Source: Methanolobus psychrotolerans
GTDB taxonomy: Archaea; Halobacteriota; Methanosarcinia; Methanosarcinales; Methanosarcinaceae
Direction: 5' to 3'
Assembly (NCBI RefSeq): GCF_002243045.1
Contig: NZ_MBKP01000009.1
Location: forward strand, 1-64,000
Length of the DNA: 64,000 nucleotides
The notes beneath the pieces are model-generated. The model was not told the origin of the DNA, did not search any database, and saw only the letters and a program-made list of their open reading frames with translations. The position numbers and the translations under genes were made by a program. Positions 8,367-47,342 of this stretch are shown here, piece by piece. The first letter of the stretch is position 1. Every line of letters starts with the position of its first letter.

Positions 8367-11300
8367 TGCCAAAGTGTGAAGACATTAAAAAAGTACTCCT
8401 GATAGGTTCAGGACCTATTATGATAGGGCAGGGCGCAGAGTTTGACTTCTCCGGCAGCCAGGCATGCAGGTCACTTAAGGAAGAAGGACTGCAGGTTGTG
8501 CTTGTCAACTCAAACCCCGCAACTATAATGACCGACCCCGAGATGGCAGATGCGGTCTACATCGAACCCATTGAAGTAAAAGCGGTGGAGAAGATCATCG
8601 CAAAGGAAAGACCTGACGGTATCATTGCAGGTATAGGAGGACAGACCGGCCTTAATATAACAAGTGAGCTTGCAGAGCATGGGATCCTTGAGAAGTACAA
8701 TGTCCGGCTCCTTGGAACTCCCCTTGACGCGATCAAGAATACCGAAGACCGTGAGCTGTTCAAGAGGACAATGGAGAGGATAGGGGAAAAAGTACCCCGC
8801 AGCAGGGCCATATCCACGCTCAAGGAAGCAGAAGAAATTATAGATGAACTCGGACTTCCTCTTATCATCCGTCCGGCATATACTCTTGGTGGCGCAGGCG
8901 GCGGTATCGCTCACTCAAAGGAAGAACTTCTTGAAATTACTGAAAGGGGTCTTCGCCGAAGCCGTATCAGCCAGGTGCTGATAGAGGAAAGTGTTCTGGG
9001 CTGGAAGGAATTCGAGTATGAGGTAATGCGTGATTCCAATGATACATGCATAGTTATCTGTAATATGGAAAACCTTGACCCAATGGGAGTACACACCGGT
9101 GAGTCTATTGTAGTTACCCCTTCCCAGACCCTCAGTGATGTGGAACACCAGATGTTAAGGACCGCTGCCATTAAGATCATAAGGGCATTAGGTATTGAGG
9201 GTGGCTGTAACATCCAGTTTGCTGTAAAGGATGGCGACTACCGTATAGTGGAAGTCAATCCACGTGTATCACGTTCATCAGCCCTTGCATCAAAGGCAAC
9301 AGGCTACCCTATAGCCAGGGTTACAGCAAAGATAGCTATCGGCATGACACTGGATGAGATCCTCAACGATGTGACCAAGAAGACACCTGCATCATTTGAG
9401 CCTACAATCGACTACATCGTTACGAAGATACCCAGGTGGCCATTTGATAAGTTCGTTAATGCGGACAAGACCCTTACCACTGCCATGAAGAGCACCGGAG
9501 AAGTAATGGCTATTGGACGCACCATCGAGGAGTCACTATTAAAAGCTGTGCGTTCCCTTGATATCAAAATGGACTTTGGTACCGATGAGTGGTCCAACAA
9601 TGAGGTAAAAACCCTGCTCCAGACGCCTACAAGTGAGCGCCTGTTCGTAATGTACCATGCTCTTTGCAATAGTTTCTCAGTGGAAGATGTATCCCAGTTA
9701 ACAGGTATTGATATATTCTTCATCAGGAAGCTTAAAAACATTATTGATATGGAAGACATGGTCAGAGAAGAAGGTTTCTCCGGAAACGTATCTGATGACA
9801 TGATGCGGGATGCTAAACGCATCGGGCTTACTGACACCCGTATTGCCGAACTTACCGGCAAGACACGTGAACAGATCAATGACCAGAGGCGCAAAGCAGG
9901 TATCACCAGCACATACAAGATGGTAGATACATGTGCAGCGGAATTTGCGGCAGAAACTCCTTATTATTATTCATGTTACGAACAGATGTGTGAAGCAGAC
10001 CCTTCCGACCGTAAGAAAATACTGATACTCGGTTCAGGACCTATACGCATAGGACAGGGAATAGAGTTCGATTACTGCACGGTTCATGCGGTTGCAGCTA
10101 TCCGTGAGGCAGGTATCGAAACCCATATCATCAACAACAACCCGGAAACAGTCTCTACTGACTATGACACATCTGACAAGCTTTTCTTTGAGCCCCTCAC
10201 ACTTGAAGACGTGATGAATGTTATCGATAAAGAAAATCCTGATGCTGTGCTTGTGCAGTTTGGAGGGCAGACATCCGTAAACCTTGCGCTTCCTCTTGAA
10301 AAGGAACTTAATAGGCGCACTGATCTTAAGACTGTTATTCTTGGTACATCTCCTGCAGATATAGATGTGGCAGAGGACCGTGAGAAGTTCAACCTGAGGA
10401 TGGGCAAGCTGGGGATCAACCAGCCGGATGCGGGTTACGCCACATCACAGAACCAGGCCATTGAGATAGCCACACGGATCGGATACCCGGTACTGGTACG
10501 CCCTTCCTATGTGCTTGGTGGCCGTGCAATGGAGATCGTCTATGACCAGAATGACCTGGAGCGCTACATGCGTGAGGCTGTGAAAGTCTCACCAGAACAC
10601 CCAATACTTATCGACGATTTCCTTGAGGGGGCCGTTGAGATAGATGTTGATGCAGTATGTGACGGCAAGGACGTACTTATTGGTGCCATCATGGAACACA
10701 TCGAGGAAGCAGGTGTTCACTCAGGTGACTCTGCATGTGTTATCCCGCCGCAGTCACTCTCAGAAGAGGTTCTTGAAATTGTACGCGATTATACCCGCAA
10801 GATCGCACTTGCACTGAATGTGAAGGGTCTTGTGAACATCCAGATGGCAAAGAAAGGGGACAAGGTCTTCGTCCTTGAAGCAAATCCCCGTTCAAGCAGG
10901 ACCATACCATTTGTGTCTAAGGCAGTTGGCCTGCCTCTTGCAAAGATAGCAGCTCGTGTTATCATGGGACAGAGCCTGGAGGAGCAGGGCTATTCAACAT
11001 GCAATGAGCCTAAAGTCAATCATGTTTCTGTGAAGGAAGTTCTCCTGCCCTTTGACAAGCTCCCCGGAGCAGACCCTGTGCTTGGTCCTGAAATGAAGAG
11101 TACCGGAGAGGTCATGGGTATAGATTACGATTATGGAAGGGCATTCTTCAAGGCACAGCTCAGCGCTGATAACCTGCTCCCGCTTACGGGAAAGGTATTC
11201 CTTTCAGTAAGGGATGAGGACCGGGAACAGCTTATTGATGTTGCACGCAAGCTCAGGGATACAGGTATCGAACTGCTGGGTACAAAAGGTACGGCAGATT

Positions 11301-27694: not shown

Positions 27695-27775
27695 ATGGCC
27701 GGAAAAGAGAAAAACCTTACTGGGATTGACAACATAAGATTCCTGATCAAGGAGCACAGGGATGAGATCAGATAG
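27695..27775 (+). pseudogene. N-terminal stub of a second MNT gene
   Basis: MAGKEKNLTGIDNIRFLIKEHRDEIR* matches the start of the gene at 29383 (MDNIRLLIKEHRDEISQLF). Confidence 0.75.
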
Positions 27776-28121
27776 TTGTTATGAGAAGTTCAATGAAATT
27801 CGCGATACATTCGATCTGGTAGAGGCCCTTGGCCTTTCCAGGGACATAGGAGAGGAGCTTCTGGATATTTGCAGACAGAATGATATCGCTTCTCTTGGGC
27901 TGTTTGGCTCTTATTCGAGAGGTCAGCAAAGCCAGGATAGTGACCTTGATCTTTTGGTCACGTTCTCAAAAGGAAAGAGTCTTATTGATCATATAAGGAC
28001 CGAGAAAGCCTTTGAAAACCTGCTTGGGATAAAAGTGGACCTTGTAACTGAAAGATCATTGAGCCACCATCTTGCCCCGGCTATTAAAAAGGATATAAAG
28101 AGGCTGTATCATGAAAGATGA
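27762..28121 (+). CDS. MNT-type nucleotidyltransferase antitoxin
   Basis: LGLFGSYSRGQQSQDSDLDLLVTFSKGKSLIDHI (GSYSRG-x7-SDxD). Confidence 0.9.
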   Translation: MRSDSCYEKFNEIRDTFDLVEALGLSRDIGEELLDICRQNDIASLGLFGSYSRGQQSQDSDLDLLVTFSKGKSLIDHIRTEKAFENLLGIKVDLVTERSLSHHLAPAIKKDIKRLYHER

Positions 28122-28440
28122 TGTTTTTTTCCTGGAGCATATACTTGATGCAGTGAATCAGATAGGAGAATACACCAATATATCGTATGATGAATTCCTT
28201 GAAACACGACTTATACAGGATGCGGTTGTCAGACAGCTTGAAATAATCGGTGAGGCTACAAAGAACCTTTCCGGGATCACGACAGAACGCTGTCCGCATG
28301 TTCCCTGGAAAGAAATTGCAGGAATGAGGGATAAGCTGATACATGCTTATTTTGGTGTTGATCTTGATGAAGTCTGGAACACTGCAAAAAAAGACATCCC
28401 ATATCTAAAGGAAGCTGTCGAGGGGCTTCTGACAAAATAA
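28111..28440 (+). CDS. HEPN (DUF86, HepT-like) toxin
   Basis: MRDKLIHAYFGVDLDEVW (Rx4HxY); overlaps MNT. Confidence 0.9.
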   Translation: MKDDVFFLEHILDAVNQIGEYTNISYDEFLETRLIQDAVVRQLEIIGEATKNLSGITTERCPHVPWKEIAGMRDKLIHAYFGVDLDEVWNTAKKDIPYLKEAVEGLLTK

Positions 28441-29382: not shown

Positions 29383-29685
29383 ATGACTAAATATGTTAAA
29401 ATGGACAACATCAGGCTCCTGATCAAAGAGCACAGGGATGAGATCAGTCAGTTGTTCAATGCAGAGATAGTTGGTATTTTCGGTTCTTATGCCAGGGGTG
29501 AAGAGAAGATCAACAGTGATGTTGACTTACTTGTAAATTTTAATGAGGATGCTACACTTTTTGACCTTGTTGGACTTGGTGACTATCTGGAAGAGCGGAT
29601 TGGGCTTCCAGTGGACGTTGTTTCAATGAGAGCTTTGCATCCAATGATGAAGAATGAAGTTCTAAAAGAGATGGTAACTATATGA
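29383..29685 (+). CDS. MNT-type nucleotidyltransferase antitoxin
   Basis: VGIFGSYARGEEKINSDVDLLVNFNEDATLFDLVGLGDYLEERIG. Confidence 0.9.
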   Translation: MTKYVKMDNIRLLIKEHRDEISQLFNAEIVGIFGSYARGEEKINSDVDLLVNFNEDATLFDLVGLGDYLEERIGLPVDVVSMRALHPMMKNEVLKEMVTI

Positions 29686-30053
29686 GATTACCGTCGCTGT
29701 ACATTTCAGAGATAATTAGTGCCATTGACTCCATAGATAATTTTACTTCAGGTATGAACAAAGATGGTTTTCTGGATGATGAGAAAACAAAAAGTGCTGT
29801 TGTACGACAGTTTGAGATAATGGGAGAAGCCAGTAAAGCTTTACCAAAGAGCATTAAAGAACTTGCACCGGACATTCCCTGGAGCAATATTGCAGGAATG
29901 AGGGACCGACTTATACACGCTTATTTTGTTGTAGATTATAATCTTGTGTGGAAGACATTGGAAGAAGAATTGCCTGGACTTAAAGAAAGACTTGAAAGAC
30001 TTGAAAGACTTGAAATGCTTCAGATCGATGCTATAAAAGATGAGAAACTCTGA
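29682..30053 (+). CDS. HEPN (DUF86, HepT-like) toxin
   Basis: MRDRLIHAYFVVDYNLVW (Rx4HxY); ATGA overlap with MNT. Confidence 0.9.
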   Translation: MRLPSLYISEIISAIDSIDNFTSGMNKDGFLDDEKTKSAVVRQFEIMGEASKALPKSIKELAPDIPWSNIAGMRDRLIHAYFVVDYNLVWKTLEEELPGLKERLERLERLEMLQIDAIKDEKL

Positions 30054-31343: not shown

Positions 31344-31772
31344 TCCTAAACGGATACTTTTGTACAAAGAACTACGAGTATGCCTGTGTTATCTGCTAAA
31401 CGACTGTTTAGCAGGCACTCAACTCCGTAGGAGGTGAGTGTATCCGTGTTCATCTGTGGTTTCTTTCAAAATATGAACCGCAGATAAACGCAGATACACG
31501 CAGATATTGCTTCTTGTCGTCCGTGTCTGTCGATGGTCAGGTGACCATTCGCATCTCTGCAAGATGAACATATATTCATGATGAACCGCACCGCCTGCGG
31601 CGGGGTGGTTGCATTGTTATAAGATCCACCAAAGAGCATGCAACAAATCTCAGCAGACCGACCAGCGGACCCCGTCTTATAGTGATCCACAGCTTAAAAC
31701 AGACAGATCAGCATCATTATCCCCTCAATATATATAACACCGCAAATTATTCTTGCGAGATTTTCACAAAAC

Positions 31773-31780
31773 TTAAATAT
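31773..31780 (+). promoter_or_regulatory. archaeal TATA-box candidate (TTAAATAT)
   Basis: Same box in the copy at 36190-36197; about 25 nt upstream of the first helix of the leader. Confidence 0.55.
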
Positions 31781-31798
31781 GTTCCCTGAGTTTAGTTT

Positions 31799-31849
31799 AC
31801 CCAACGAAGTATAATTATACAGGCATACGATCTGCCTGCTGTGTTGGGT
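31799..31849 (+). ncRNA. candidate structured 5' leader (three-way junction), copy 1
   Basis: P1 ACCCAAC/GTTGGGT, P2 GTATAATTATAC, P3 AGGCA/TGCCT; P1' overlaps the GGGTGA RBS. Confidence 0.5.
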
Positions 31850-31858
31850 GAATGAAAA

Positions 31859-32035
31859 ATGGTGGTAGTGAGCAGTCTTTCTGATCTTAGGATTCTGGTT
31901 ACAGGTGGCGCCGGCTTCATCGGCAGTCACGTAGTTGACAGGCTTGTAAAGTCAGGTAACAAAGTTACCGTTTTTGACAACCTCAGCTTCGGCAGGATGG
32001 ATTTCATAGCCCATCATCATAATAATTCTTATTAA
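31859..32035 (+). pseudogene. 5' fragment of an NAD-dependent sugar epimerase (GalE/SDR-like)
   Basis: [58 protein letters not shown]: Rossmann GxxGFIG then abrupt end. Confidence 0.85.
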
Positions 32036-32040
32036 TATCT

Positions 32041-32262
32041 ATGGATGTAACTGAGCACTATCTGATCGAGGAGTACTCAAATGGCAGAATAAGTAAGGGA
32101 AAAGCTGCCAAGATGCTGGATATCAGTATTTATGAGATCAACGACCTGTTCGAAAAACATCGTGTTAAAGATAGTATTAGCTATGAGAACTTTATCAAAG
32201 GCATGGAAATTGCTGAGAAATACAGCAAGTATGGTCCTGATAAAGAGAAAAAGAAAGAATGA
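32041..32262 (+). CDS. small UPF0175-like/HTH antitoxin-type protein
   Basis: LIEEYSNGRISKGKAAKMLDISIYEINDLFEKH. Confidence 0.6.
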   Translation: MDVTEHYLIEEYSNGRISKGKAAKMLDISIYEINDLFEKHRVKDSISYENFIKGMEIAEKYSKYGPDKEKKKE

Positions 32263-33164: not shown

Positions 33165-33395
33165 TGATAAGGAATGCGCAGAAGCATACTATACCCCGCA
33201 GACTTCCGGACGCATAGACAAGGTTATGCAAAAGTTTTACAGATCATCTTTGCCTGTCCATCCGCTTGCTGCAGGGGAAGTCAGCCTTAGCGAGACAGAG
33301 GCTTAAGAAATGCTGGTCTTATTCTGAAATGAACCGCAGATACACTCACCTCTTACAGAGTTGAGTGCCTGCTAAACATCCGTTTAGCAGGTCAC
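33165..33395 (+). pseudogene. duplicated C-terminal fragment of the YgiT gene plus repeat unit (parent 28573-28795)
   Basis: aaggaatgcgcagaagcatactataccccgcagacttccggacgcatagacaaggttatgcaaaagttttacagatcatc... Confidence 0.9.
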
Positions 33396-33975
33396 GCAGA
33401 TGCACGCAGATTTTTGTTTATTCTCATCCGTGTTTATCCGTGTTCATCTGTGGTTTTATTTCACATTGGACCGCAGATAAACGCAGATGCACACAGATAT
33501 TGTTTATTCTCATCTGTGTTTATCTGTGTTCATCTGTGGTTTTAATTAATAGCGAACCGCAGATAAACGCAGATGCACGCATATATTGATTCTTGTCGTC
33601 CGTGTTTATCTGTGTTCATCTGTGGTTTTAATTAATAGCGAACCGCAGATAAACGCAGATGCACACAGATATTATTTATTCTCATCTGCGTTAATCTGTG
33701 TTCATCTGTGGTTTTAGTCAATAGCGAACCGCAGATACACGCAGATGCACGCAGATATTGGTTAGTCTCATCTGCGTTAATCTGTGTTCATCTGTGGTTT
33801 TATTTCACATTGGACCGCAGATAAACGCAGATGCACGCAGATTTTTGTTTATTCTCATCCGTGTTTATCCGTGTTCATCTGTGGTTTCTTTCAAAATATG
33901 AACCGCAGATAAACGCAGATGCACGCATATATTGATTCTTGTCGTCCGTGTCTATCGATGGTCAGGTGACCATTC
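33334..33975 (+). repeat. 86-bp-period palindromic repeat array (7 units, first carries hairpin insert)
   Basis: CCGCAGAT unit starts at 33334, 33471, 33557, 33643, 33729, 33815 and 33903; ends at ATGGTCAGGTGACCAT (33958-33973). Confidence 0.95.
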
Positions 33976-35339: not shown

Positions 35340-35651
35340 TGAGCAGGCACTCAACTCCGTAGGAAGTGAGTGTATCCGTGTTCATCTGTGGTTTTAATTA
35401 ATAACGAACCGCAGATAAACGCAGATGCACACAGATATTGTTTATTCTAATCTGCGTTAATCTGTGTTCATCTGTGGTTTTAGTTTATAGCGAACCGCAG
35501 ATAAACGCAGATGCACACAGATATTGTTTATTCTAATCTGTGTTTATCCGTGTTCATCTGTGGTTTTAGTTAATAACGAACCGCAGATACACGCAGATGC
35601 ACACAGATATTGTTTATTCTCATCTATGTCTATCGATGGTCAGGTGACCAT
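35340..35651 (+). repeat. 86-bp-period palindromic repeat array (3 full units plus degenerate hairpin insert and end cap)
   Basis: CCGCAGAT at 35409, 35495 and 35581; cap ATGGTCAGGTGACCAT 35636-35651. Confidence 0.93.
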
Positions 35652-36215
35652 TCGGATCTCTACAAAATTAACATATATTGATGATGGAACGCACCACCTG
35701 CCACCGATATGTTTACGCCATTATCAAACCCACCAAAGAGCATGCACCAGATCTCACCAGACCGACCAGCGGACCCCTGGACAAGCGACACAAAAGCCCG
35801 GGTATAGATAGAGCTGCTTCTCAGAACAACCCGTTATTCTTCCAGAAGAACTTTTTTTCGCAACCCCTTTCAAACTCCTCCAAAACACCGGGATAAAGCG
35901 CCGGACACCTGGCTTCTTCCAGTGTTATACAAAATATCATCACCCATGAGATAAATACACCCCAACGCCCTCAACAGTCTCAATAAACACACAACCTCCC
36001 CCATCAGACAGTACTGTCGATCCTGCTGACAGATCCTGCTAATATCCAGGGATATATCCTTTTTCTCCTCTCCGCCCGGACCGACCCCCAGCTTTTAGCA
36101 ATCCAGGCTTAAAACAGACAAATTACCACCATTATCCCCACCATTTATATATAACGCCGCAAATTATTCTTGCACTATTTTCACAAAACTTAAATATGTT
36201 CAATGAATCTAATGT

Positions 36216-36266
36216 ACCCATTGAAGTACAAATGTACAGGCATACGATGTGCCTGCTGTGATGGGT
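36216..36266 (+). ncRNA. candidate structured 5' leader (three-way junction), copy 2, upstream of flippase
   Basis: P1 ACCCATT/GATGGGT, P2 GTACAAATGTAC, P3 AGGCA/TGCCT; TATA at 36190-36197; GGGTGA RBS at 36263-36268. Confidence 0.5.
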
Positions 36267-36333
36267 GATTGAAAAATGGTGGTATCAGACAGATCATATT
36301 TTACTCATGTTTTCTTTCTGAGCTGGTAATATC

Positions 36334-37614
36334 ATGTTCAACTTCAAGCTCACCAAAACGATGCGTGATGTCCAGTGGTCATTCATCAGCCTTGCCACTG
36401 CATCTTTATCCCACCTGCTGCTAAGGATAGTTCTGGGAAGGGAGCTTGGACCTGAGGGTTTGGGAGTTTACACGCTGGTTTTTACCATTTATCTTTTTGG
36501 AATGCAATTTGCAGGTTTTGGTATTGGATCAGCTTTAACTAAATATGTTGCTGAGTTCAGTGACGAATCCAGCAAAGTCAAAGAATATGTTTCAGCAGGA
36601 TTTTCAAGTTCAATAATCACTGGCGTTATGATGGCCATTGTACTTTATTTAGTATCTGATTTTATAGCTATGTCAGTGTTCCACATTCCTGAAATGGGTG
36701 ACTTTCTTAAATTTGTATCTTTCTGTTTGCCATTCATAGCTATTCAAAAAATGGTATTAGGAGCCTTGGTTGGCCTTCGTAAAATGAAATTGTATGCATT
36801 GATAAATATTATCCAGAACACGTTCATCTTTTTATTATCTATTTACCTGGTTTTGGTCTTAAATGCTGATGTAAGAGGAGCAGTATTTGGTTTTGTTATC
36901 CCTACTATAATAATAAGCATTATATCTGCCTTTTTCATTAAAGACTTGTACAAAATTACATATTTGTCCTTTACAGACAAATTTAAGGACGTAGCATGGT
37001 TTGGATTTTATTTTGTTCTGGCAAATTCAATTGGAATGATTAATACTCAAATTGATAGCTTGATGGTTGGACATTTAATGGATGCTACAAGTGTAGGAAT
37101 ATATGCTGTTGCAATAATAATAATACATGGAATCACGTTGATACCCAATTCTGTTCATACTGCAATAGCACCGCCTATAGCGTATCACTATGGAAAAGGT
37201 GAATATGAAAAGACGATTAATTTGATTAGACAAACGATGCTTAAAGTATTTATTGTCATATTCGTTATTGCTTTAGTATTGGCTTTTTTTGGAGAAACTT
37301 TAATCGTTTTACTATTCACTAATGATTTTATATTTGCATATTCTCCCTTGCTAGTTTTACTAATTGGTTATTCTATTTATTCACCTGTACATTCTGTTGA
37401 CTGTACACTTTTAAGCATAGGGAAAGTTAATGTAATATACAAAATAGCTTTAATATGTGCTATTTGCAATATTATATTCAATATTTTACTAATTCCTAAA
37501 TATGGGATATTAGGTGCCTCATTGGCCACCAGCATGTCAATTATTTTGTTGTCAATATTGAAATTATATTTTATTAAAAAATACGTATTGGATTTGAGAA
37601 ATACTTTAAAATAA
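36334..37614 (+). CDS. flippase/oligosaccharide exporter (MATE/MVF superfamily)
   Basis: LLLRIVLGRELGPEGLGVYTLVFTIYLFGMQFAGFGIGSALTKYVAEF; about 12-14 TM. Confidence 0.9.
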   Translation: MFNFKLTKTMRDVQWSFISLATASLSHLLLRIVLGRELGPEGLGVYTLVFTIYLFGMQFAGFGIGSALTKYVAEFSDESSKVKEYVSAGFSSSIITGVMMAIVLYLVSDFIAMSVFHIPEMGDFLKFVSFCLPFIAIQKMVLGALVGLRKMKLYALINIIQNTFIFLLSIYLVLVLNADVRGAVFGFVIPTIIISIISAFFIKDLYKITYLSFTDKFKDVAWFGFYFVLANSIGMINTQIDSLMVGHLMDATSVGIYAVAIIIIHGITLIPNSVHTAIAPPIAYHYGKGEYEKTINLIRQTMLKVFIVIFVIALVLAFFGETLIVLLFTNDFIFAYSPLLVLLIGYSIYSPVHSVDCTLLSIGKVNVIYKIALICAICNIIFNILLIPKYGILGASLATSMSIILLSILKLYFIKKYVLDLRNTLK

Positions 37615-37634: not shown

Positions 37635-39551
37635 ATGGAAATTTACTGTGGGACGGGTATGGAAAAAGATAACAATAGATTCAAAATAACTGCTAAGTTA
37701 ATTCTATACGCATTACCCATAATGGGCATACTTGGCCTGCTAATCCCAACGATAATTGGCCAATTCAATCTAACACTTTTAGGTAGTTATCTTGCAATCC
37801 CTATGATTGTAGCACCCCTTATTTATCATAAATATAAAGACAACACTTCGGATTCAATAGAATTAAACAACAGAATCTTTATTCTGCTTCTAAGTGTTTA
37901 TTTTATTTGTATTTTTTTAGCTACTATTATTGTGTATATTAGTGAAGTCAGACCAATTTTATTTTACTTAATTGTCACAATAATGAGCTTAATTATATTG
38001 TTTGAAATTTTGCTGTTCAATGATTCAAATATGAAAACAAAGGTCATTCTTTTTCAGTCAATGATATTGATGCTTTGTATCTTGTGGAGTGTAAACCTTA
38101 ACTATTTTTATTATATTTCTCGTACAGATCCGATATTTCATGTTGCAGCAATTGAATCCCTTATAAATAATGCTTATATTGAAGCAGAAATTTTCGAAAT
38201 ATATAAACCGTTTCCCTTGTGGCATGTTTTATGCACTATGGTTTATTACATATCTGCTTTAGATTTACCTATACAAAAAATAATGTTTTTCACAAATGGA
38301 ATTATTTATTCCTTCACTCCTGTAATCACATATCTCATTTCCAGAAAAATATTTAGCAATAACAAGGTTTCATTGTTAAGTGCTTTATTCATAGTTTTAA
38401 ATCCTGATGTGATTGGTTATGGAATGGCATCCATTTCCAGAAGCGTTGTATCTTTTTTATTTTTACTGTTAATATTATCACTTCTCTATAAGTCAAACTT
38501 GAAAATGGTTTTTCTTTCAATAATGTTAATATTCCCAATTGTAATGTACCATACAGCTTCAACTCCTTTTATATTTACAATTCTTTTATTACTATTGATA
38601 GGACAACATATCTACGATAAAAATAAAAACATATTTACATATAACTTTCTAGTAATTTTTATTATATTCAATCTGTTGTATTGGATGTTTTATGCTGAAT
38701 TATTATTTGAAACAATAATAAGTACCATCATAAGAGAAGCACCATCTGGCATAATTACAAGTTCTATCATTTATACGCCCTTAAACGAACTTTTTAATTA
38801 CCTTCAATACACACCTATGCTTTTTTTTGTTATAATTGGTACGCTGGGAACTTTATACTCCAATAGGCTTCCATCAATTGCCAAAATTTTTGTCTTGTTA
38901 GGGCTATTATCAGTTGTGGTAGCTTTTCCTGGTCCAGCACTTCTTATTAATAAATTTGCAGGAAATTTTAATGTAGGAAGATTTGGACAATATTTATTCC
39001 CATTTATTACTTTTGCCATTGCTATTGGTTTTTATACAATGTACAAAACAACACAAAAATATTCAAAAAGTTTTTTGTTATTATTGTTCATATCTCTAGC
39101 TTTTTTATCTGTTTCAAATGATTTTATAGCATCAGACAACCCCATAATCGAAAGACCATTTTATACATATTATCTAACAGAACAAGAAATTAATTCCTTT
39201 AACACTATAGGTATATTTACTTCAGGATCTATTATGTCGGATTATGTAACAACCAGATATACATCTCTTTCAAATACACCCCATAGTGATAAAAGACATA
39301 TTTTGGTGGTTGATTCCACGAACATGAAAGTTTTAAGAGAAAAAGATAATGATGTTTTTTTGATAAGACAGAGTGAATTGTCAAAAAGACCTTTGAAATT
39401 GTATTCTAACACGGATGGATATTTCAAGCCAAATCCATCATGGGAAGGGGGGAGCAAAATCGATTACTACTATAAAGATTTAAGCTTGTGGAATGATTTT
39501 GAATCCTACAATAAAGTTTATGATACAAAGAGTATTCTAGCTTTTACTTGA
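37635..39551 (+). CDS. polytopic membrane protein, surface-glycan cluster (glycosyltransferase/DUF2206-like)
   Basis: Many TM segments; RTDPIFHVAAIESLINNAYIEAEIFEIYKPFPLWHVL. Confidence 0.65.
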   Translation: MEIYCGTGMEKDNNRFKITAKLILYALPIMGILGLLIPTIIGQFNLTLLGSYLAIPMIVAPLIYHKYKDNTSDSIELNNRIFILLLSVYFICIFLATIIVYISEVRPILFYLIVTIMSLIILFEILLFNDSNMKTKVILFQSMILMLCILWSVNLNYFYYISRTDPIFHVAAIESLINNAYIEAEIFEIYKPFPLWHVLCTMVYYISALDLPIQKIMFFTNGIIYSFTPVITYLISRKIFSNNKVSLLSALFIVLNPDVIGYGMASISRSVVSFLFLLLILSLLYKSNLKMVFLSIMLIFPIVMYHTASTPFIFTILLLLLIGQHIYDKNKNIFTYNFLVIFIIFNLLYWMFYAELLFETIISTIIREAPSGIITSSIIYTPLNELFNYLQYTPMLFFVIIGTLGTLYSNRLPSIAKIFVLLGLLSVVVAFPGPALLINKFAGNFNVGRFGQYLFPFITFAIAIGFYTMYKTTQKYSKSFLLLLFISLAFLSVSNDFIASDNPIIERPFYTYYLTEQEINSFNTIGIFTSGSIMSDYVTTRYTSLSNTPHSDKRHILVVDSTNMKVLREKDNDVFLIRQSELSKRPLKLYSNTDGYFKPNPSWEGGSKIDYYYKDLSLWNDFESYNKVYDTKSILAFT

Positions 39552-44716: not shown

Positions 44717-44824
44717 GATATTCCCTCTATATATTTACATTATTATTACTCAAATATATAGTTTTGGAATTATAATTGTGCAACGTGTAGCAGATCGGCG
44801 TTGGTGGTATAGAATGAACATCTG

Positions 44825-45475
44825 CGTTCATCTGCGTTTATCAGCGGCTCACTATTAAAACTAAAACCACAGATGAACACAGATAAACACAGATGAGAAT
44901 AAACGATATCTGCGTTCATCTGCGTTTATCTGCGGTCCACTATTAACTAAAACCACAGATGAACACGGATAAACACAGATGATAATAACCAATATCTGCG
45001 TTTATCTGCGGTTCACTATTAACTAAAACCACAGATGAACACGGATAAACACAGATGATAAAAGCCAATATCTGCGTTTATCTGCGTTTATCAGCGGCTC
45101 GCTATCAAAACTAAAACCACAGATGAACACGGATAAACACAGATGATAATAACCAATATCTGCGTTCATCTGCGTTTATCTGCGGCTCACTATTAACTAA
45201 AACCGCAGATGAACACGGATAAACACAGATGATAATAACCAATATCTGCGTTCATCTGCGTTTATCTGCGGTCCACTATTAACTAAAACCACAGATGAAC
45301 ACAGATAAACACAGATGAGAATAAACGATATCTGCGTTCATCTGCGTTTATCTGCGGTTCACTATTAACTAAAACCGCAGATGAACACGGATAAACACAG
45401 ATGATAATAACCAATATCTGCGTGCATCTGTGTTTATCAGCGGTTCGCTATTGACAAAAACCACAGATGAACACG
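44825..45475 (-). repeat. 86-bp-period palindromic repeat array (8 units)
   Basis: ACCRCAGATGAACAC starts at 44866, 44952, 45028, 45116, 45202, 45288, 45374 and 45460 (spacings 86, 76, 88, 86, 86, 86, 86). Confidence 0.95.
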
Positions 45476-45761
45476 AATACAAAACAACCACCCGCCGCAG
45501 GCGGCACCTTCCATCATCACTGAATAAAGTCAAACTTTATTGTCATAACAATAATTGTATACACAATAATACTTAACACTTACCAGAACAGATCCACAAC
45601 ATCCACCATAGTAACTCAGACCCACAACCAACCCACAGCAGGATGCACCTTCCATCGTCAACAAACAACATACTCCGCGACAAAAACAACGATCAGCGCA
45701 AATACAAAGATCAGCGCGGATACAAAAACAAGAGCCACAACCACCCGATCCCGGACAACCA

Positions 45762-47342
45762 TCACTTGATCTCAATTTCCATTTGCTTTAAAAGATCAAA
45801 GCCCTTACCCGTAGTCCTGTACTTCTGGAGTCTGCTCCTTGGTTTTTCGGGTATCGTATAATCCAGCAGATCATATCTTATCAGCTCTGCTATGGCCTTC
45901 TTAACACTTCCCGAAACTTCTGAATGCCCCAGCATCTGCGCAATCTCTCTTTTCGACTTTGGATCAGTGGTGCATTCGGATAATATCTTCACTTGTGTAT
46001 CTGTTATTTTGACTTGGGCCTCGACTTGGGCCTCGACTTGGGCCTCGACTTGGGCCTCGGAGTGGCTTCTTAAAACAGTAAGAAAGTAACTTCTCTCGTC
46101 ATCCGTCTTAAATACAGGTCCAGGCGATCCGTTGTTCAGCAGTGCCTTCCTTATCTTCCGAAAACCAGTGTTCCTGCCTTCTGTCAGATGCAATTCCTTG
46201 AGGAAATCACCTATTATCCGGTTCCTGTATCTTCTTGAAGAGATATTTTCATCCATCAGATTATCCTTATTCAGAGGAGGCAATGGCCCCGGATAGCTCA
46301 GTATCTCGATCCTGGCAGGATAGATCCTCACTTCCACAGGCTCATATATCTCATAGCTTTTGTGATAGACTGCATTGACAAGAGCTTCTTCGAAAGCCTC
46401 ATAGGGATAATTAAAAAAGCGTATAGCTTCTGCCTGGTCAGGAACTTTCCGTACAGTCTCTGCTATGATATTGTTCTTTATATATGCAAGAACAGAAACT
46501 ATCTGCTGTCTCAAAGGACCTGTGAATATTCTTTCTGTGAAACTGTCCCCTACCTCATCCTGAAACTCAACGACATCTATCTGTGCCCCCTTAAAGAATC
46601 TGTGAGGCTCATCATTAAAGAACAAAAGACCTGCATTCTTTGGTCTGATATACTCATCAGGTCCTCCAACGATATTCATCCTTCTGCAAAGATCAGCAAA
46701 CGGTATTGAATCAGCCACGGACAAAAGATCACTTCCCACCACCTTAAGATGGGCTTTGGTGAGGGTGAAGTTCAGGTCGTTAATACTTGCATTGTGATTT
46801 ATCCTGTCATCAAAGGGTATCGACGCAGTCATAGACAGCAGTTCCCTTTCATCATCCCCCTGAGCCTTTACGGTCTTTGAAAATCTCCGGATATAATATG
46901 CATACTCCTTTCTCTTACCAAGGGAAACAGGAGCTTTATATGGGCGGTTCTGTCCTCCTGGCACCCAGATGATCAAAATTTGTTCATTATGCAAATATAT
47001 AGGTTCAACAACCGGAAAATAGGCTGGATATAGCAGATTGCACAGCTCATGCAATTCCTTCTGTATCCGGTCTACTTGTTCACTTTTAAGTCCGAAAGGA
47101 GGCAACAGGGGTCGTCCATTCTTTTCCTCGATCCCCAGAATGATGTAACCGCCGCCCCAATTGTTAAAATCATTGGCAAAAGCACAGATACTGTGTAAAA
47201 CAGATTCCGGATTCCATCCCTTTTTAAATTCAATGCGCTCCCATTCAACAGTACGGCCATTAATAAGTTCTTTGATATTTACAGGAAGTGGCATTACATG
47301 CGTTCTCCTTTTGTCTCTCTTTCTTCCCTTCAGATCCATCAT
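45762..47342 (-). CDS. AlbA_2 (Schlafen-type)/RecG-like ATP-binding putative transcriptional regulator
   Basis: ESVLHSICAFANDFNNWGGGYIILGIEEKNG...FFNYPYEAFEEALVNAVYHKSYEIYEPVEVRIYPARIEILSYPGPLPPL. Confidence 0.88.
   Translation of the reverse strand: MMDLKGRKRDKRRTHVMPLPVNIKELINGRTVEWERIEFKKGWNPESVLHSICAFANDFNNWGGGYIILGIEEKNGRPLLPPFGLKSEQVDRIQKELHELCNLLYPAYFPVVEPIYLHNEQILIIWVPGGQNRPYKAPVSLGKRKEYAYYIRRFSKTVKAQGDDERELLSMTASIPFDDRINHNASINDLNFTLTKAHLKVVGSDLLSVADSIPFADLCRRMNIVGGPDEYIRPKNAGLLFFNDEPHRFFKGAQIDVVEFQDEVGDSFTERIFTGPLRQQIVSVLAYIKNNIIAETVRKVPDQAEAIRFFNYPYEAFEEALVNAVYHKSYEIYEPVEVRIYPARIEILSYPGPLPPLNKDNLMDENISSRRYRNRIIGDFLKELHLTEGRNTGFRKIRKALLNNGSPGPVFKTDDERSYFLTVLRSHSEAQVEAQVEAQVEAQVKITDTQVKILSECTTDPKSKREIAQMLGHSEVSGSVKKAIAELIRYDLLDYTIPEKPRSRLQKYRTTGKGFDLLKQMEIEIK
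46011..46058 (-). repeat. 4x 12-bp in-frame tandem repeat (EAQV) in AlbA_2 protein linker
   Basis: gacttgggcctc x4. Confidence 0.97.

What the first reader, a model, noticed from the sequence alone, without database searches (positions are those of the whole stretch)
36216..36266. Second copy of the leader shows compensatory base changes in two helices
Copy 2 reads ACCCATT...GATGGGT and GTACAAATGTAC. P1 position 6 is A-U in copy 1 (A31804-T31844) and U-A in copy 2 (T36221-A36261). P1 position 7 is C-G vs U-G. The P2 fourth pair is U-A in copy 1 and C-G in copy 2. Both copies are exactly 51 nt with the same spacing to TATA box, RBS and ATG. Two sequences are weak covariation evidence, but double changes that keep pairing are unlikely under neutral decay of a ~70-80% identical duplicate. 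The copy lies upstream of the surface-glycan flippase; the first ATG after it (36276) would give only a 17-codon leader peptide (MVVSDRSYFTHVFFLSW*).
Basis: partly seen in the sequence, partly recalled or inferred. Interest (0 to 1): 0.76.

Follow-up and report, generated by a model that had tools for sequence, protein, structure and literature searches.

The report
Shared start region of archaeal glycan operons
The two matching leaders are real and belong to a family of promoter-plus-leader 'operon heads' in front of cell-surface sugar genes in one group of methane-making archaea, but relatives confirm only one small hairpin and not the base-pairing changes that drew attention.

Summary
All 17 pairs kept with at least two double changes has p = 0.0004 under random substitution. 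The copies belong to a longer repeated block (31692-31870 / 36107-36284): promoter, leader and first codons. I found 23 promoter-anchored heads in 16 of 27 congeners and one other genus. Across 15 alignable leaders a different hairpin, P3 (CAGGC...GCCUG), is kept (91% paired). P2 fails. P1 is patchy: strong in both window copies and one clade, broken in others, and own strands pair no better than strands swapped between species (p = 0.63). P1's 5' strand lies at the predicted transcription start and its 3' strand is the Shine-Dalgarno, so both have other reasons to be conserved. The more interesting fact is that the head outlives its gene: galE is intact at 8 of 23 heads; most others have a galE or wecB stub before an unrelated glycan gene. 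The '17-codon leader peptide' is probably such a remnant. Best reading: a conserved promoter/translation-start module reused before changing glycan operons. SD-sequestering regulation by P1 remains possible but unproven.

The parts
31692..31870 (+). Copy 1 of the repeated head block: upstream region, promoter, leader, first codons
   Evidence: 85% identical to 36107-36284
36107..36284 (+). Copy 2 of the repeated head block
31741..31757 (+). Upstream inverted repeat CGCAA-N7-TTGCG, copy 1 (possible regulator site)
   Evidence: also in G026a and G095
36158..36174 (+). Upstream inverted repeat, copy 2 (last base changed: CGCAAATTATTCTTGCA)
31762..31782 (+). BRE/TATA promoter TTTCACAAAACTTAAATATGT, copy 1
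   Evidence: only two matches with up to 3 mismatches in the own genome, both here
36179..36199 (+). BRE/TATA promoter, copy 2 (identical to copy 1)
31799..31849 (+). Leader copy 1, P1 ACCCAACG...TGTTGGGT; TSS predicted at or just after its first base
   Evidence: TATA-to-TSS distance 19-22 nt from PMC5378194
36216..36266 (+). Leader copy 2 (the finding), P1 ACCCATTG...TGATGGGT
31820..31838 (+). P3 hairpin copy 1 (CAGGCA...TGCCTG)
   Evidence: P3 is the helix supported across homologues
36237..36255 (+). P3 hairpin copy 2
31847..31851 (+). Shine-Dalgarno GGTGA copy 1, overlapping the 3' strand of P1
   Evidence: sequence; 7 nt before ATG 31859
36264..36268 (+). Shine-Dalgarno GGTGA copy 2, overlapping the 3' strand of P1
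   Evidence: sequence; 7 nt before ATG 36276
31859..32035 (+). 58-codon stub of a galE-like NAD-dependent epimerase (first 53 residues 81% identical to the intact gene of G021)
   Evidence: no intact orthologue in the own genome
36276..36329 (+). 17-codon ORF, probably a remnant of the same start (MVV plus unrelated codons); stop 4 nt before the flippase ATG
36334..37614 (+). Polysaccharide flippase (Polysacc_synt, PF01943)
37635..39551 (+). 638-aa ORF, next gene on the same strand, no Pfam match

Best explanation
The element is one of two copies of a conserved operon head of surface-glycan genes in a Methanosarcinaceae genus (probably Methanolobus). It consists of a strong, unusually conserved BRE/TATA promoter, a roughly 60-nt 5' UTR whose start of transcription falls at or just after the conserved TACCC, one conserved stem-loop (P3, CAGGC...GCCUG), a GGTGA Shine-Dalgarno and an ATG. 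Its original context was a galE-like epimerase (or, in a subtype, wecB). The head drives transcription and translation initiation. During turnover of the glycan cluster it is kept or copied while the gene behind it is truncated and replaced, leaving a short stub ORF before the new first gene. Shown: conservation of the block, the hairpin, the stubs and the swapped genes. Inferred: promoter activity, the TSS, and retention because the head supplies expression signals and shared homology for exchange. In the window copies P1 can also pair the mRNA 5' end with the SD and could dampen translation, but this is not a conserved feature of the family.
For: Leader and promoter homologues in the genus and in one G095 locus, none elsewhere among 186 genomes of the order at E <= 0.05. 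Intact galE-like gene (PF01370) behind 8 of 23 heads: G021, G026a, G007, G003, G012, G008, G014c, G001b. Stubs or very short ORFs at 15 heads, followed by flippase, DegT-type aminotransferase, manC-like, acyltransferase, dehydrogenase or rmlC-like genes (names beyond Pfam hits read from sequence). Own genome holds no intact orthologue, only the 55-codon match behind copy 1. P3 paired in 82 of 90 cells, p = 0.005 or less against unconstrained evolution from a paired root for fraction paired, p = 0.002 in the strand-swap test, and the only helix in the consensus fold of all 15.
Against: No expression data for this genome; TSS and SD are predicted. Homologues come from one genus plus one locus, so shared ancestry explains part of the conservation. 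P3 is weak in G003, G016, G026c and G015. That stubs are kept by selection rather than slow decay is not shown. Gene swapping is inferred from comparison of loci, not from sister strains.
Confidence: 0.68

Rival explanations
1. SD-sequestering cis-regulatory RNA: P1 joins the extreme 5' end of the mRNA to the Shine-Dalgarno; a ligand, protein or temperature opens it to switch on surface-glycan genes (riboswitch-, thermosensor- or protein-attenuator-like).
For: P1 strand pairing probability about 0.97 in both copies with GGUG only about 0.28 unpaired at 37 C. The difference pattern between copies keeps all pairs (p = 0.0004). Clade B consensus fold contains P1. Excluding the G021/G026/G095 clade, the strand-swap test gives p = 0.035, a post hoc exclusion. 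SD-masking stem-loops have been predicted in 5' UTRs of Methanolobus psychrophilus (PMC5378194).
Against: P1 broken in G026a, G026b, G003, G014b and weakened in G021 and G095; no strand-swap support over all 20 (p = 0.63) or one per clade (p = 0.39). P1 is not in the consensus fold of all 15. A TSS even 2-4 nt downstream of the first A removes much of P1's 5' strand. No Rfam match.
Confidence: 0.17
2. DNA-level element: the palindromes at P2 (GTATAATTATAC / GTACAAATGTAC) and the upstream CGCAA-N7-TTGCG are operator or activator sites for a glycan regulator, and the leader conservation is DNA-binding constraint.
For: P2 is a perfect inverted repeat in both window copies although it does not appear in the MFE RNA fold. 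The upstream repeat is kept in win1, win2, G026a and G095. TACCC keeps a fixed position relative to TATA in nearly all galE-type leaders.
Against: The P2 palindrome is degenerate in G001, G009, G025, G026a and G026b and absent from the wecB-type heads; the upstream repeat is missing in most species. P3 conservation through changed pairs fits RNA better.
Confidence: 0.1
3. Plain decayed repeat: a local duplication of an old galE promoter region without present function.
For: galE is a stub behind copy 1 and almost wholly gone behind copy 2; the region is full of repeats and toxin-antitoxin-like modules.
Against: Promoter identical in both copies and matched within 1 mismatch at most heads across the genus; P3, SD and ATG spacing kept in species where the gene is gone; copy 2 sits just before an intact flippase, separated only by the short ORF and 4 nt.
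Confidence: 0.05

Closest known systems
JUMPstart/ops element of enterobacterial polysaccharide operons (RfaH system)
   Same: A short conserved sequence in the untranslated leader of many different surface-polysaccharide operons whose gene content changes (PMC6391919; JUMPstart recalled from general knowledge).
   Different: Archaeal; the conserved block includes the promoter and start codon. The GGCGGTAG core is not present: GGTGGTAG over codons 1-3 in win1, GGTGGTAT in win2. No RfaH-type factor was sought.
EAR (eps-associated RNA) of Bacillus exopolysaccharide operons
   Same: Structured RNA near the start of exopolysaccharide genes (recalled; named in PMC7858274).
   Different: No Rfam match at gathering score or at relaxed E-value for the copy-2 region; one short hairpin instead of a large multi-helix RNA.
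SD-masking structured 5' UTRs reported in Methanolobus psychrophilus
   Same: Same probable genus, 5' UTR of similar length (65 nt in Hsp20), predicted burial of the ribosome binding site (PMC5378194).
   Different: Those are temperature-dependent alternative TSS isoforms of single genes; here the same head precedes different glycan genes.

Membership tests
Covarying structured cis-regulatory RNA (three helices P1/P2/P3) | P1 pairs maintained through compensatory change across homologues | tested here: not met
   Strand-swap p = 0.63 all, 0.20 galE type; broken in several lineages; marginal only in selected subsets
Covarying structured cis-regulatory RNA (three helices P1/P2/P3) | P2 pairs maintained across homologues | tested here: not met
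   Pair 1 formed in 7/15, pair 4 in 9/15; absent from consensus folds
Covarying structured cis-regulatory RNA (three helices P1/P2/P3) | P3 hairpin maintained | tested here: met
   82/90 cells paired; C-G to A-U at pair 1 and C-G to U-A/A-U at pair 5
Riboswitch or thermosensor | Ligand- or temperature-dependent switch of SD access | not testable with these tools
   Needs probing or reporter assay
JUMPstart/ops (RfaH-dependent) | ops core GGCGGTAG in the leader | tested here: not met
   No such core in the leaders printed; nearest is GGTGGTAG over codons 1-3, last base not conserved
JUMPstart/ops (RfaH-dependent) | Specialised NusG/Spt5 paralogue acting on it | not tested
   Not searched
EAR or any other Rfam RNA family | Match to an Rfam covariance model | tested here: not met
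   Nothing at gathering score in the window; only sub-threshold snoRNA noise near copy 2
Conserved glycan-operon head | Same promoter and leader ahead of different glycan genes in several species | tested here: met

The most novel reading that the evidence does not exclude
An archaeal counterpart of a polysaccharide-operon leader: a portable promoter-leader-start module that stays at the head of glycan clusters while the genes behind it are exchanged, and that in some lineages carries an SD-sequestering RNA switch, with the short stub ORF coupling translation to whatever gene follows.
Probability: 0.2. Interest if true: 0.7.

Novelty: new variant of a known kind. Interest (0 to 1): 0.4.

Why it matters
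Leaders shared by otherwise different polysaccharide operons are known from bacteria, where they control long glycan operons. I found no description of one in archaea in the literature and Rfam searches made here, which were limited. If the head is selected as a reusable expression module, the stubs left behind would record how often methanogen surface-glycan clusters are rebuilt, and would give a simple marker for finding such clusters. The result is also a caution: two-copy covariation that looks convincing can vanish when homologues are added.

Tried and rejected
First own-genome pattern search used a wrong spacing and found nothing; corrected. The genome-contig scan with the P3 core found only unrelated bacteria, so no named relatives were obtained; the genus name is inferred. 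MAFFT alone misaligned the 3' half of the leaders, so pair counts were made on a hand-anchored alignment. A null without a paired ancestor gave too favourable p-values and was replaced by one evolving from a paired root. A shifted P2 register fits G019 and G007 but not the family. Rfam at relaxed E-value gave only sub-threshold snoRNA noise. Weak CM hits in G005, G013, G008 (second hit) and G010 (second hit) were judged chance. Selection for translational coupling by the stubs was considered, but several next-gene starts are uncertain and no test was made.

Full report
CHECK OF THE OBSERVATION. They differ at 7 of 51 positions. P1 pair 6 (A-U vs U-A) and P2 pair 4 (U-A vs C-G) change on both sides, P1 pair 7 changes C-G to U-G, and two differences fall in loops. 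Random placement of 7 substitutions keeps all 17 pairs with at least two double changes in 0.04% of trials. This is a post hoc figure with equal rates at all sites. The similarity is not confined to the leader: 31692-31870 matches 36107-36284 at 85%, covering an upstream inverted repeat, an identical BRE/TATA element (31762-31782, 36179-36199) and the first codons.

HOMOLOGUES. BLASTN, a pattern and a covariance model (R1) found the head in the window's genus and in one locus of another genus of the family (G095), with no other match among 186 genomes of the order at E <= 0.05. I collected 23 promoter-anchored heads from 16 of the 27 genomes in the genus plus G095. Fifteen have galE-type leaders that can be aligned by hand-set anchors, four are a wecB-type (G006, G010, G026c, G015), and four are strongly diverged (G012, G008, G014c, G001b). 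A further wecB-type head, in front of a near-complete wecB, appeared later in G021.

WHICH HELICES ARE REAL. P3 (CAGGCA...TGCCTG) is paired in 82 of 90 cells, with C-G/A-U at pair 1 and C-G/U-A/A-U at pair 5. Its fraction paired exceeds unconstrained evolution from a paired ancestor (p = 0.005 or less). Its own arms pair better than arms swapped between species (p = 0.002), and it is the only helix in the consensus fold of all 15. P2 pair 1 is paired in 7/15 and pair 4 in 9/15, and P2 is absent from consensus folds and from the MFE folds of both window copies. P1 pairs 1-3 hardly vary and so carry no covariation. Pairs 4-8 are paired in about 67% of cells, within the null from a paired root (p about 0.13-0.25; the count of double changes is borderline, 0.04-0.07). 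In an alignment-free test the P1 strands of a species pair no better than strands taken from other species (p = 0.63 for 20 leaders, 0.20 for 15). Dropping the G021/G026/G095 clade gives p = 0.035, a post hoc choice. P1 is strong in both window copies (about 0.97) and in the G001/G009/G025 group, and absent or weak in G026a, G026b, G003, G007 and G014b.

WHY P1 STRANDS LOOK CONSERVED ANYWAY. In Methanolobus psychrophilus, BRE/TATA lies about 19-22 nt from the TSS in 81.6% of primary transcripts (PMC5378194). Counted from CTTAAATA (36189-36196), this puts the start at about 36216-36219, inside ACCC. The 3' strand contains the GGTGA Shine-Dalgarno, 7 nt before ATG. Both strands thus have independent reasons for conservation, and whether P1 exists in the RNA depends on the exact start nucleotide.

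WHAT THE HEAD IS ATTACHED TO. In G021 and G026a the head precedes an intact operon of a galE-like epimerase (PF01370), a wecB-like UDP-GlcNAc 2-epimerase (PF02350) and a UDP-sugar dehydrogenase. At 8 of 23 heads galE is intact or nearly so. G007 is 299 aa and G003 294 aa, with only the first 90 residues of G003 aligned. At the other 15 heads the first ORF is short (9-72 codons): mostly a truncated galE start, a 17-codon ORF followed by a truncated wecB start (G006, G026c, G015), or too short to assign (G001, G016, window copy 2). The next full gene is flippase (window), acyltransferase then flippase (G016), a DegT-type aminotransferase (G019), a manC-like gene (G014b), a dehydrogenase (G009) or an rmlC-like gene (G026c) (most names read from sequence). 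The own genome has no intact orthologue of this galE, only the stub behind copy 1. Copy 2 keeps MVV, and its 17-codon ORF ends 4 nt before the flippase ATG. It is most simply a remnant of the old start, possibly serving translational coupling (not tested).

MECHANISM. The best reading is a conserved transcription and translation start module of glycan operons, with one stable stem-loop, retained or copied while the genes behind it are replaced. Promoter function and retention by selection are inferred; conservation, stubs and swapped genes are shown. SD sequestration by P1 is physically plausible for the window copies but not a family trait.

COMPARISON. The closest functional analogue is the JUMPstart/ops leader of bacterial polysaccharide operons (PMC6391919). 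Membership fails on the ops core. There is no Rfam family match. I found no paper describing this head, but the library holds only open-licence papers and few searches were made.

VERDICT. Observation confirmed. Interpretation partly supported: structured leader yes (P3), covarying P1/P2 no. Moderate interest, mainly for the operon-head pattern.

Noticed in passing
window 33394-33956, 35374-35625, 44820-45479: Arrays of an 86-bp tandem repeat (ATCCGTGTTCATCTGTGG... family), two in one orientation and one inverted, flanking the glycan genes; not a multiple of three.
   Followed up: no
window 27762-28440 and 29383-30053: Two neighbouring nucleotidyltransferase/HepT-like gene pairs (toxin-antitoxin type, PF01909/PF01934) with repeated DNA around them.
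   Followed up: partly
window 31741-31757 and 36158-36174: Inverted repeat CGCAA-N7-TTGCG just upstream of the BRE (one base changed in copy 2), also in G026a and G095: possible regulator site.
   Followed up: partly
L144 (G021:C30, wecB at 10981), L045, L036, L047: wecB-type heads carry a similar 17-codon ORF (MLVTIFPKSFLFGGIRP, MLHIPFPDIFFFGGAHP, MLFIVFWNCSLPGGVLP, MLFIMFLNYSLPGGVLQ) ending at the wecB start; looks conserved and may be a coupling or leader peptide.
   Followed up: partly
L040 1917-3176 (minus strand): UDP-sugar dehydrogenase ORF with a run of 12 isoleucines near its N-terminus, suggesting a variable simple repeat.
   Followed up: no
window 46011-46059: Four perfect copies of a 12-bp repeat (GACTTGGGCCTC) inside the SLFN/AlbA_2-domain ORF.
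   Followed up: no
window 32041-32262: Short ORF MDVTEHYLIEEYSNGRISKGKAAKML... (73 codons) right after the galE stub, resembling small antitoxin-like proteins by eye.
   Followed up: no
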